Origin: Anaspis maculata
Taxonomy: Eukaryota > Arthropoda > Insecta > Coleoptera > Scraptiidae
DNA: 64,000 bases
Reading direction: 5' to 3'
NCBI GenBank assembly: GCA_949128115.1
Contig: OX421963.1
Coordinates: forward strand, 40,345,979-40,409,978
In this document: positions 36,401 to 45,400 of the stretch, piece after piece
Position numbering within the stretch: the first letter of the stretch is position 1
Layout of the letters: every line of letters begins with the position of its first letter
Position numbers and translations under genes: made by a program
The notes under the pieces: model-generated
What the model was told of the DNA's origin: nothing
Databases searched by the model: none
What the model saw: the letters and a program-made list of their open reading frames with translations, nothing else

Positions 36401-39400
36401 GGATAATTTTGGCCAGGCGATCGCGAGTGCTGGTTGTAGCGATAAATGCCCGACTCCGTAGGAGGAGGGCATTTATCCAGGGACAAATCTCGAGCACGAG
36501 TGACATTTTGATGATAATTGCAAAAAAAAGTCCAAAGTGGCAGCTGTCAGATTTTGTTGTTTACATTCATTTTATTTCGTTGCCATTGACAGCGGGATCA
36601 AGATAAGTGAGTATTATCCTTAAAGGTTTAATAATCAAGGGCGGTGTATGGAATAATCAATATAAAGTACTCTTGAGGCAGTTCTTTAAACTGTCCTGGA
36701 CTTCTTTCATGGTGAGTTCAGAACAACACCTGTATAATTGGAAATGCTATGGGGTTGGTATGAATCTGTAAGGAGTCTTTGGGGTCCATTTGATTTGCCG
36801 GAGGTTTTCTTGAAGTTTTTTTTCTCAACAAACCAATTCATTTGAACCAGGCTCTTCAGATTTTAGTCATGAATTGGTGTACTGTCAGGCAGCGATAAAA
36901 TTAGAACCCAATAAGATTTATTGAAAAAAAAATCTAATTGGTAGGTACTTGCAACCGGATGTTAAAGACGCAAGTCGCAATTCTAAATAATTGAAATTGA
37001 TCTAAATGTGACCGTGAATCGGTTTGTTTTGGATTTTGAAATGAAGGTTGTGAATGGCACCATCAGCTTTCCAAGTAAAATCCGATGTTTTGGCACGACT
37101 GGCGCTCTGATGGCTGCTGCCGGTATTTAATAATTCATGTTTTTCATTTTCGCTTTGTGCGCTTCTTTATTACAAAGCGATTCATTAATTTCTGTGCTGC
37201 ACACAGGGACGCCATCAATCTTGCCGTGCTGAGCTTGAAAGAGGACGGAGAGCTGACGAAACTGACGAACAGATGGTGGTACGACAGGACGGAGTGCATA
37301 CACGATAAACAGGTGATTTTCCCGATTTTCGCTTCCGAAGACTTTAATTATTTAAGTCAATTAGCGGGCGCGCATTAACAATTTACGACGAGATTTCGCC
37401 GATCAGTCTCCAATAATTTGCTCGCGTTATCCACCAGGACGCGTCCAGGAACGAGCTGTCGCTGAGCAACGTCGCCGGCATTTTCTACATCCTGATTGGG
37501 GGGCTGATAATAGCCTTGGGGGTGGCGCTCTTCGAGTTTTGCTACAAGTCTCACACGGAGGCCACTAGGGCCAAGATTCCGCTGAGCGATGCCATGAAAG
37601 CCAAAGCCAGGCTGACGATCGGAGTCGGCAGGGACTACGACAACGGAAGGGTAATGTATCTTTCATTATTTTACATTGACTTTGAAAAAAAAAGGAGAGT
37701 TGTAAAAACTGAACAAACTGAACCATTTCTATATTTCTTTGTTTCATTTCCTATGCAACATATTAGCAAGGTGACTTTTTTCAAAATTCTAAAAAGTGGG
37801 TACCTTCTGTTGTAGTCATCTACATCTTTTGTGATGTCCGTATTCATACACGACGTATAAAGTCCTTGGTTCATTGATTTTTTTTTGGCCATACTTGGTC
37901 TTGCATTTTCCAACAAAAGACAAGATCTCCAAAATATACAATGAAACCATTTTCGCGTCTCTATTGTGACAGAAAATTCTTATTTAATAAATATTTAAGT
38001 ATACCGTCTCAGTTCAAAAGAAAAAAAGTGCAGTATCAAAACGTTGTGGACCGATTTTCAATTAATTTTCATGGCAAATGTGTTGCAAAAACTCAGATCA
38101 ACCAATGGATCGAAGCGACAAATTATGGTCGACAACAAGGGTCTGGTCTTCTTTTCGAAAGTAATGTTGCGAGTGGCGAGGATCTCAGCATGCGATAAAT
38201 ACGGAGGCGTGTACTATACAAGGTGTCGCGAAATTAGACGGCAATATTTGACTAGCTCATTCTACGTCAAAAAATAGAAAGAAACGTTGCGATAAACATA
38301 GGTCGAATAATGCCCGCTAAGGGAGCTAGAGCTCCTCAAAGGGGGAAATCTGATGATTTTTTTGCAGATTTCTCTGAAACTTGCCATGTTAAAATGACGA
38401 AATTTGGTTTGACCGCTACATGTTATAAGCCTGGGGTAATGCTGTGAAAAAAGATTTCCACAATTCATCAGGGATGTCCAAAAATGAAGGGGACGGGGGA
38501 TGAATTCAGCTTCATTTTTTTTTTGTCCTTGACTTTTCTGAATTTTGATTAGAAAACTGGAAAATCAGAGTTTTTATGGAAAATAAGTCCTCTTGTACTA
38601 TTTCGATCCGACGAACCGTTTGCGAGAAGAATCACTTGAAAGAAAATTTTACCAGAAATTCTCCTAAAATTTTCAAATCCCGAATACAGAAATCAGAGTA
38701 CCAACCGTGTTTTCTTGGCCCAAGAACAGGAAGAAACGTTTTAATAAAAATGGGTTGAGATTGCTCCCTATGGGAATTAAAGCCCCTATAGCGCGATTAA
38801 TTTTATGTCGGCAAGTTACCTTTTCAAGGAGCTCTAGGTCCCCTAAGGACATTTTCAACCCACCTTTATTGAACCTTTCTTCTTGTTTTTGATTTAAAAA
38901 AACACAGTTGGTGTTATTGCTCTGATTTCTGTACTAGGAATTTGGAAAATTGAGGTAAAGTTTTCTTCAGTGATTTATCTCGGAAATGGTGCGTCGAACC
39001 GAAATAGTGGTGCTAGGACAATTCGTCTCGCGGACAATTCGTAGCGGACAATTCGTCGCGGACAATTCGTCCCGCGGACAATTCGTCTCACGGACAATTC
39101 GTCCCGCGGACAATTCGTCGCAAGTGATGGCTTCGGAAGGTAAGGGGGTTATATTACACATGAAGACACAAGGGGGCTCAATAAAAGGATCTGAAAATCA
39201 TAAGCAAATGCAAGGGGTTCCGACAGAGATCCGAACGCCACGAAAAAATGCAACGGGGCTCAGCAAGGCTTCAAACGATATTGAAAACACAAGGGGGCCT
39301 TATGGAGCTTCGAGAGGACTCCGAATATCACATAGAGGCATAAGGTGCTTATTACTGCTTCGAAAGCCACGGAAAGATGTAAGGGGGCTCAACATGCAGG

Positions 39401-42400: not shown

Positions 42401-45400
42401 TTCGTCATTTTATCGCGGCAGGTTTCGGGGAAATTTGCAAAAAACCATCATCAGGTTTTCCCCTTTAAGAGGCTCTAGCTCGATCCCTTAGGGGGCATTA
42501 TTCGACCTATGTTTATTGGAACTTTTCTCCCTATTTCTTGACGTAGAATAAGCTGTCAAATATTGCCGTCTACTTTGTATATTCGAGGCAGTGCAGTTCC
42601 AGAAGGTTTGCGAAAGCTTGAGATCAAGATGTGCTAGTAAGACGTCTGTATAATCGGCGAAGTGCGGCGTCTGGAGCTTGCTTGGGATCCGATCCACACC
42701 GGGGCGAAGAACTCCCACCCGGAATGAACTAATCATAAACACTAATTCCAGCTAGCGACAAGGGGCCCACGCAAGTGACAGTCCTCAATGCCCCAAGAGT
42801 TACTCCGTCTTACTCTCGGTCTTACTGCTGCGGAAGTCACGTAATAGCCTTCTTTTAAGTGAAAAGCTTGACGAGGACAATTGCGTGTTTGTTGTCGATA
42901 CCAAGCCACAAAATCAACTGTTCGACGTGGATTACTTGGGAGGCAACACATTGTGCCACTGAGGGACGGCGCTCGCTTGACTACAGCTACCGGACAGTCT
43001 GCTACATTGTACGTAGGAGCTGAAGGGAGCATTCAATCCGAAAAGATGCGTGCTCTTCCAGGAGCAAATTTTGAGGACACGTTGTGTCATCAAAAGAAAT
43101 CGAAACCCAGCGAAATTGGATTCTGTCCGAAAATGGCTACGACCAAGAAATCATTATGAGATCAGAAATTTCTTGGGCTTATGCAGATGCAGACGATTTG
43201 TGGTGGAGTTCGCTGACAGTGCTGACCCCTTACACAAACTCATCGAAGACCATACGCTATTCCTGCGGACCAAGGAATGTGAAAACTCATTTAAGACTAT
43301 GAAGGTTGAACTTGTTCAAGTCCTATCGTGGCATTCCCTCTACCACAAAGACACTTTGTCGCCTTGGATACTGGTGCCAGCAACACCGGAGTTGGAGCAG
43401 TCCTGTCACAACACCAGCAGAGCCAAGAGCGAGTAGTGGAGTGCTACAGCAAAGTGTAGTCCAATCAGAAAAGAAGCAGTGCGTTACACGCAAGGAGCTA
43501 CTGGCCATGTTGTCGACAACTTTCACCAGTTCCTTTAAAGCCGTAAATTTTTCGTGAGGACTGACTCACGCTGCGCTGAAATGACTGCAGTTCAAAAATC
43601 CAGAGGAGCAGTTACCACGGTGGATCGAGAAACTGCAACAATGTGACTTCAAAATTCAACATCGTGTGCGAAAAGATCAATGGCAACGCAGATGATCTTC
43701 TCGAAGTCCAGAATGGGAACGTGGTTCTGTCAAAAGCGATCGTTGTTGATACCCCAAGAAATTGGACTACGGCTGGCTGAGCTCAAGAAGCAGCAGCGCG
43801 AGGACCCAGCTATCGGTCCACTTGCTCAAAGGAAAGAACTTGGACAGGACAGACCAAAGTGGGCCGAGATATCTGGTGGAGGGCCCGAATCTAAAGCTTC
43901 CTGGGCTCAGTGGAATTCTCTGAGGATAAAGGATGGGCTGTCGAAAGATTATGGGGGAGTCCTGATGGGAAGATGGAGATGGCTCAATTGGTGCTTCTCA
44001 AGTGAGTGAAAGAAGTCTCGAGGGAGATGCACGACGGCGTCACCGGGAGACACCTTGGGGTAAACAAGACGTTGGCCAAGGTATGTTAGCGGTTCTACTG
44101 GGTGAACTGCCGGAACGACGTGGAAGCGTCGTGTCGCCAGTGCAAGGTTTGTGCGGCCAGGAGGTGACACAAGAGCTCGCAATGTCGAGTTCAAAAAACT
44201 TACAATGCCGGAGTGCCTTTTGAAAGCATCGCCATCGATGTGGGTGTTCGTGGGTACGCAATTTTGAAATATTTCAGGCAGAAAAAATCGGGGAAGATGC
44301 CTTAATGTAAAAAAAATCAAGAGGTTGGAAATGGTGCGTCAATTTATTGTTAAAACATGAGTTTCCCAAAATTTGGAGACGTGAGACACAATAATTTAGA
44401 AAGTTCACAGTTTAGCTACTACTGAATTTCTCGATTTGTAGGACCCTCGCAAAAATAATATAATGTTTTTTTTTTAATACTTTAATAGTCCTATTCCGAG
44501 ACCGCAGTTTATACAACTCGAAAGTCTAAAGATGTCTGTCTGTGTGCATGGGTGCCAAAATAGTACACGCTGAAACAGGTTGCCGAACAAAGCAACTAAT
44601 TGAATTTGCAGTCATTAATCACTCGCAGCGGAAGAGGAATCATTCCATTGTGGAATATGTTTCGCATTTTATCACCACACACAGACACCTCACACAGAAA
44701 GCGTGCACCCCGTAGCTCAGGCCTGGCGACGTAGGAGAACATTCAGTGTTCTGTGTGTGTGTTATCGTGTATTGTTTCAGAGGTACGGTAGGTGTCCTCG
44801 ACATGTAACGATCAACACTAGTGCAAATCGACGTTTCCCTCCATCACATCAACACTAAACATCACTGATATTTTACACATAAAAAACTGCTCGTTCGAAC
44901 GGTAAACATTTACTCGTTGACCTATTTTTCCGACTTCCGCAATTTTCCATACCTACTTACCGAAACGAAACAACACTTCCGCCCTCAGATCCCACAAAAA
45001 ATTCAAACTCGTTGCACTCTGACCTCATAGGTACCTGCGTTAGCAGTGCACAATATTTACATATTATGTACAGTAGCTTTTTTTCTTCCTAAAAAGTGAC
45101 AACAAATTAAAGGTGAAAACTGGGAATCTCCTTGTTCATCATTAGGTTGGAAAAACTTCCTGGGGCCCTTTCTTCGGAAACGAAATGGATCCACATCCAC
45201 ATTACGTTGAGCTGTGAATGGGTGGAATGCATGTTTCTGACGCGAAGCATGGTTGGTTAGGTGATGGGATCCGTTCCATATTTCCGAAAATAGGGCCCCT
45301 GAGATCTAAATAAAGAAATTGAAAGTGTCGAAGTTATAGGGTATCACCTTGGGTATCACATAAAGGCTCGGAGACCAGTTACGAAATTTAAAAAATTAAA

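What the first reader, a model, noticed from the sequence alone, without database searches (positions are those of the whole stretch)
38215..42581. Foldback element that carries a higher-order minisatellite between inverted GGACAATTCGTC arrays
Seen directly: outer arms of about 380 bp, inner borders of seven and three GGACAATTCGTC copies in opposite orientation, and a 3-kb array of about 40-bp units between them. This three-layer symmetry suggests a mobile or amplifying unit that transports satellite DNA, similar in plan to Drosophila FB elements but with a different repeat. I do not recognise this architecture as a named element.
Basis: partly seen in the sequence, partly recalled or inferred. 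Interest (0 to 1): 0.8.

Follow-up and report, generated by a model that had tools for sequence, protein, structure and literature searches.

The report
Mutator-type transposon carrying frozen minisatellite
What looked like one three-layered element in a beetle genome is a Mutator-like jumping gene, whose 3-kb body is an old degenerate minisatellite, sitting inside an unrelated hairpin element: a known kind of transposon with an unusual passenger.

Summary
The repeats described are real, but they are two nested elements, not one. The inner unit, 39009-42186, is a non-autonomous DNA transposon: each end is a 7-bp tip plus an array of GGACAATTCGTC, and the body is a degenerate 40-bp minisatellite. 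In the host genome (Anaspis maculata icAnaMacu3.1, recognised by its longest scaffold) its two end types have 347 and 494 exact copies, against 0 for reversed controls. Paired ends lie a median 3.4 kb apart. Of 40 end pairs, 30 have perfect 8- or 9-bp target site duplications, 8 have one mismatch and 2 have none. The body is copied colinearly, so it is frozen passenger DNA. The outer arms belong to a separate foldback family: 9 of 9 other copies cut out lack motif and satellite, and 4 show the uninterrupted insertion site. The anatomy matches Muta1-type Mutator-like elements. A FLYWCH+MULE element in the same genome has end arrays of a related repeat and a 9-bp duplication. No transposase-encoding copy with the exact motif was found.

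The parts
39009..42186 (+). Non-autonomous Mutator-like element, 3178 bp, A end to B end
   Evidence: Ends defined by alignment of independent copies; length and target duplication; 94-99% identical to nine other typical copies
39009..39015 (+). A tip, GGTGCTA
   Evidence: 347 exact A ends (tip plus motif) genome-wide, reversed control 0
39016..39119 (+). A-end array: seven copies of GGACAATTCGTC with 2-4 base spacers
39120..42135 (+). Body: degenerate minisatellite with 40-base period, non-coding
   Evidence: colinear in other copies
42136..42179 (-). B-end array: three copies of GGACAATTCGTC
42180..42186 (-). B tip, CGTGACC read inward
   Evidence: 494 exact B ends (tip plus motif) genome-wide, reversed control 0
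39001..39008 (+). Left target site duplication GAAATAGT
   Evidence: single copy in related empty sites
42187..42194 (+). Right target site duplication GAAATAGT
38231..38604 (+). Left arm of the host foldback element, a separate family
   Evidence: 45 matches from 40 scored of 858 candidates; nine other copies without motif or satellite. The terminus may extend some 15 bases further left, by comparison with other copies
38597..39008 (+). Inner palindrome of the host foldback element
   Evidence: 68.5% self-inverted; contiguous with both arms in other copies
42187..42576 (-). Right arm of the host foldback element
   Evidence: 78.9% identical to the left arm

Best explanation
Two nested elements. 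A roughly 1.2-kb foldback element (arms 38231-38604 and 42187-42576 around an inner palindrome) was hit by a 3.2-kb non-autonomous Mutator-like element (39009-42186), which duplicated 8 bp of target. Each end of the Mutator-like element is a 7-bp tip followed by a tandem array of GGACAATTCGTC with 2-4 base spacers (nine copies, 143 bp, in the commonest form seen), the two arrays facing each other. The body is an old, degenerate 40-bp minisatellite without a gene. Inferred mechanism: a FLYWCH+MULE transposase made elsewhere binds the repeated 12-mers at both ends, cuts the whole unit out and inserts it at a new site with an 8- or 9-bp staggered cut; the minisatellite rides along as inert internal DNA, which is why its unit order is the same in the copies of a subfamily. 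Shown: ends, duplications, empty sites, colinear body, independence of the arms. Inferred: which transposase moves it, and that the 12-mers are its binding sites.
For: Two unlike but consistent ends, 494 and 347 exact copies against 0 and 0. 57 of 73 A ends in the compared stretches have an inward-facing B end within 20 kb, 2 have a neighbour in another orientation. Target duplications: 30 perfect (19 of 8 bp, 11 of 9 bp), 8 with one mismatch, 2 none, of 40 pairs; shuffled pairing of flanks gave 0 of 272 and 2 of 380, the 2 from one duplicated locus. Related empty sites in 4 of 4 foldback copies aligned there. Body: units 63% alike within the element but 97% to the same kind of unit in another copy. 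MULE type: same end plan and 8/9-bp duplications as Muta1; a 4952-bp FLYWCH+MULE element on C9 has inward-facing arrays of GGACAACTTGACGC, 11 of 14 bases identical to GGACAATTCGTCGC, and a 9-bp duplication.
Against: No MULE with the exact motif array was found: 0 of 10 inspected MULE loci out of 67 hits, and no C1 MULE hit lies within 130 kb of a listed exact end. Six of the ten inspected loci showed no GGACAA array in the stretch read. The second locus with the related array (L094/L102) gave no target duplication. The 11 of 14 match was picked after looking at ten loci; 523 of 200000 shuffles reach it. Transposase families PF21788, PF12762 and PF18758 could not be searched.
Confidence: 0.85

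Rival explanations
1. One composite foldback element: arms, motif arrays and satellite move together as a unit.
For: The layers are concentric in this one locus.
Against: Arms without satellite in 9 of 9 other loci; unit without flanking arms in 19 of 19 other loci; 8-bp target duplication exactly at the boundary of the inner unit; uninterrupted foldback copies.
Confidence: 0.02
2. A locally amplifying satellite array whose borders happen to be motif repeats, not a transposon.
For: The body is tandemly repeated; a diverged relative without the motif lies at 18630-20113 of the window.
Against: Length peak, colinear order, target duplications and the position of the best body matches near exact ends: 11 of 11 on C1, 3 of 4 on C2. 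Only the best 40 of 2832 body candidates were scored, so bare diverged arrays are not excluded.
Confidence: 0.03
3. The same nested non-autonomous transposon, but moved by another transposase: a Rehavkus element proper, Merlin, P or hAT.
For: Rehavkus elements are listed with 9-bp duplications and a minisatellite, and one is known from the beetle Tribolium. The partner was not found here.
Against: Mixed 8 and 9 bp duplications (19 and 11) are what Muta1 shows; Rehavkus is listed with 9 bp only. That P and hAT make fixed-length duplications and Merlin 8-9 bp is recalled, not looked up. FLYWCH+MULE elements with the same end design and a related repeat exist in this genome.
Confidence: 0.1

Closest known systems
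Muta1 and Muta5 MULEs of Aedes aegypti and their derivatives (PMC5225508, passages read); grouped with Phantom, group 20, in PMC6446971 (passages read)
   Same: Ends of about 145-151 bp made of a short tip and nine tandem 12- or 15-bp repeats, with 3-4 bp spacers in Muta1; 8- or 9-bp duplications; hundreds of non-autonomous copies with truncated arrays and unrelated interiors
   Different: Repeat sequence not compared; here the interior is a minisatellite shared by whole subfamilies, and no autonomous copy was found. Minisatellite is not mentioned in the Muta1 paper (0 occurrences)
FLYWCH+MULE element at C9:51756980-51761931 of the same genome (L101, L103, L096)
   Same: Inward-facing end arrays of 14-16 bp repeats beginning GGACAA, 9-bp duplication, tips similar by eye
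   Different: Encodes a 482-codon frame with MULE and FLYWCH domains; repeat differs at 3 of 14 bases; no 40-bp body seen in the parts read
Rehavkus (PMC6446971 and PMC10218199, passages read)
   Same: Minisatellite in the element, tandem repeats in the ends, 9-bp duplications, known from a beetle
   Different: PHD-finger transposase; end repeat of 164 bp in Tribolium; duplications listed as 9 bp only
Tetris foldback of Drosophila virilis (PMC4079207, abstract and one section read)
   Same: Non-autonomous, tandem repeats inside inverted ends, 8-9 bp duplications in complete copies
   Different: 220-bp repeats that grew into long satellite arrays; here the body array is frozen
Galileo (PMC3573991, passages read)
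   Same: Internally repetitive ends; chimeric copies without matching duplications, as L015 and the L083/L084 pair may be
   Different: 7-bp duplications, P-type transposase, repeats of about 210 bp

Membership tests
Mutator-like element (MULE), Muta/Phantom type, non-autonomous | Target site duplications of 8-10 bp | tested here: met
   30 of 40 pairs perfect at 8 or 9 bp, 8 with one mismatch, 2 none
Mutator-like element (MULE), Muta/Phantom type, non-autonomous | Inverted ends built of a tip plus tandem 12-15 bp repeats, about 145 bp, as in Muta1 and Muta5 | tested here: met
   Nine 12-mers and 143 bp at both ends of L019, L020, L040, L041, L046; fewer or more in other copies
Mutator-like element (MULE), Muta/Phantom type, non-autonomous | Shares its ends with a copy that encodes a MULE transposase | tested here: inconclusive
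   Related but not identical arrays on FLYWCH+MULE elements; exact array in 0 of 10 inspected loci of 67 hits
Rehavkus | PHD-finger transposase with the same ends | not tested
   No search for it was run; the element itself encodes nothing
Rehavkus | 9-bp duplications | tested here: not met
   19 of 30 perfect duplications are 8 bp
P superfamily (Galileo type) | P-type transposase (PF21788) linked to the ends | not tested
   The search was asked several times and never answered (for example)
Drosophila FB (foldback) elements | Shared ancestry with FB ends or transposase | not tested
   No FB sequence was at hand; the likeness is in plan only

The most novel reading that the evidence does not exclude
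The minisatellite is not inert stuffing. A Mutator-like family has kept a 3-kb minisatellite of some 75 units in nearly fixed length and order through hundreds of insertions because the array serves the element, for example as accessory protein-binding sites or as a spacer that sets chromatin or the pairing of the ends; the family also seeds the genome with ready-made satellite arrays.
Probability: 0.12. Interest if true: 0.6.

Novelty: new member of a known kind. Interest (0 to 1): 0.36.

Why it matters
It resolves a puzzling three-layer pattern into two ordinary events and shows how nested palindromic elements can imitate one composite element. The family is a natural test of how tandem repeats evolve inside a transposon: the 12-mer end arrays differ in number between close copies, while the 40-mer body, also tandem, is inherited as a block. 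If some copies later expand their bodies, this would be a source of new satellites. It also places the Muta1 end design, described for mosquito MULEs, in a beetle genome.

Tried and rejected
Virus or phage link: the only IMG/VR match to two tandem motifs (L001) shares just 27 bases with the window, has no tandem repeats and no other similarity to it; rejected as coincidence.

Autonomous copies among long units: three 5.6-5.8 kb units (L048-L050) are the normal element plus palindromic or duplicated insertions; no frame long enough to suggest a transposase was seen, the longest being 172 codons (these frames were not run against Pfam). The 14.8-kb pair (L012 with L013) is an element with another insertion in its A array. 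The 11.4-kb pair on C2 was not read. The short element L017 holds a 0.9-kb palindrome.

MULE partner: 67 PF10551 hits. Three loci were read over 6.3 kb and seven sampled over 0.8 kb. The sampled stretches were placed by analogy with L093 and may miss arrays; L097 and L098 belong to transposases 96-97% like that of L093 yet showed no array. None of the ten carries the exact motif array.

Not settled: time scale (divergence was measured, but no rate is at hand); target duplication of the outer foldback family. The literature on Sitophilus repeats (PMC8576890, passages) and on arthropod MULEs (PMC13359780, passages) gave nothing decisive. No paper in the held library contains GGACAATTCGTC or its complement.
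Full report
Host. The genome that holds the window has 757,842,296 bases in 50 contigs; the window lies on contig C3.

Observation. The motif is far beyond chance genome-wide: 6804 exact copies against 57 for the reversed motif.

The layers separate. The first 100 listed motif places, which cover about the first 12.15 Mb of contig C1, were fetched as 19 loci. Fifteen of the 19 carry the satellite next to the motif. L013 is the interrupted A end of the L012 element. Three (L010, L014, L023) have a lone or fused motif and no satellite. 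None of the 19 has the outer arms around the unit; L025 has a 116-base arm fragment outside it. Conversely, the left arm has 45 matches, from 40 scored of 858 candidates. Nine loci other than the window were cut out with 1.5 kb on each side. All nine lack motif and satellite, and the fuller ones show a foldback of about 1.15-1.2 kb, arm-palindrome-arm. In the four copies that I aligned across the insertion point the sequence runs on with one copy of the target. So the satellite unit landed in a foldback element.

Ends and target duplications. Independent copies define two unlike ends: A is GGTGCTA plus the GGACAATTCGTC array (GGTTCTA in a second subfamily), B is CGTGACC plus the array. Exact A ends number 347 and exact B ends 494, with 0 for the reversed controls (100 places of each are listed). 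In the stretch where both lists overlap (C1, and C2 to 22.2 Mb), 57 of 73 A ends have an inward-facing B end within 20 kb, and 2 have a neighbour in another orientation. The median distance is 3415 bp, and 32 of 57 lie between 3343 and 3508 bp. Target duplications were read for 40 pairs: 17 for which a tolerant search of 28 loci found both ends, the next 20 pairs on C1, and three long pairs (flanks read by eye). Thirty are perfect (19 of 8 bp, 11 of 9 bp), eight have one mismatch, and two have none. Two of the perfect pairs share flanks and look like one duplicated locus. As a control, left flanks paired with right flanks of other copies matched in 0 of 272 cases and 2 of 380, the two coming from that locus. 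Outside this count, the L012/L013 pair also has an 8-bp duplication, TTTTTAGT.

Body. The body repeats every 40 bases. Its units are about 63% alike, against 52% for shuffled sequence, while each window unit finds a 97% match on average in another copy, L043. Ten typical subfamily-1 copies are 94-99% identical end to end; L015 and L021 are 89-93%. A second subfamily (L024, L025, L028) is about 66% like the first. The best 40 genomic matches to a 401-base piece of the body are 96-100% identical, the window itself being the 100% one (2832 candidates, 40 scored). All 11 on C1 lie within 0.5-2.9 kb of an exact A or B end. Three of 4 on C2 lie within 0.9 kb of an exact A end; the fourth has no listed A end near it and lies beyond the listed B ends. 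The array therefore arose and decayed before these copies spread. What differs between close copies is the number of 12-mers: 7 and 3 in the window, 9 and 8 in L018, 11 and 10 in L043 (counted with up to three mismatches), although these three are 98.6-98.8% identical.

What moves it. The element encodes nothing that I could see. Its plan matches Muta1 of Aedes aegypti, an active MULE: 145-bp inverted ends with a 10-bp tip and nine 12-bp repeats at 3-4 bp spacers, 8- or 9-bp duplications, and over 300 derivatives (PMC5225508, passages read). In this genome the MULE domain has 67 matches; ten loci were inspected. L092 and L093 (FLYWCH and MULE domains) carry arrays with GGACAAAA-type cores and 15-31 base periods, but no terminal duplication was found for them. 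L094 and L096 carry arrays of GGACAACTTGACGC, identical to GGACAATTCGTCGC at 11 of 14 bases; 523 of 200000 shuffles reach that in any register. The L096 element spans 4952 bp on C9, has inward-facing arrays at both ends, is flanked by the 9-bp repeat GCTCTGTTT and encodes a 482-codon frame with FLYWCH and MULE domains. For the L094 element no duplication was found. By eye the two tips of the C9 element (GAAGCAGGACAA and GCGTACATGACAA) resemble A (GGTGCTAGGACAA) and B (CGTGACCGGACAA). Six loci showed no such array in the stretch read, and none of the ten has the exact motif array. None of 17 MULE hits on C1 is within 130 kb of a listed exact end. The assignment to MULEs therefore rests on anatomy, duplication length and a related repeat, not on an identified partner.

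Comparison. Phantom-group MULEs are listed with 8-10 bp duplications, no finger or a FLYWCH or SWIM finger and, in aphids, a minisatellite after the transposase gene; Rehavkus with 9 bp, a PHD finger and a minisatellite (PMC6446971, passages). Repeats riding in non-autonomous DNA elements are reviewed for several animals (PMC9659126, passages). This is a new member of a known kind, unusual in that its whole body is a frozen minisatellite.

Limits. Searches for other transposase families did not complete. Palindromic repeats span 17.5 of the 64 kb of the window, so chance nesting is not surprising.

Noticed in passing
window 18630-20113: A diverged relative of the minisatellite (best stretches 60-68% to the bodies of the elements) arranged as two inverted halves, without the GGACAATTCGTC motif.
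   Followed up: partly
window 8183-9554, 17364-18542, 32746-34155, 46371-48248, 54327-55927 and others: The window is rich in palindromic (foldback) repeats: inverted pairs under 3 kb span 17,531 of 64,000 bases.
   Followed up: no
window 28802-29497: Coding exon of an ionotropic glutamate receptor (Pfam Lig_chan, E 6.7e-18), so the nested elements may lie in or near that gene.
   Followed up: partly
window 42577-42643 and 20440-20506: A 67-base repeat, 84% identical, next to the right arm and near the diverged satellite.
   Followed up: no
L014, C1:4202100: Two A tips fused head to head around a single motif, GGTGCTAGGACAATTCGTCCTAGCACC, with no body: perhaps a footprint or a minimal deletion product.
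   Followed up: no
L012 and L013, C1:2300198-2310242: About 10 kb of other DNA, with AGGGTCCTTGCA at both junctions in opposite orientation, is inserted inside the A array of one element.
   Followed up: no
C6:2578917-2581950: Two MULE matches in opposite orientation 2.4 kb apart, each in a 649-codon open frame.
   Followed up: no
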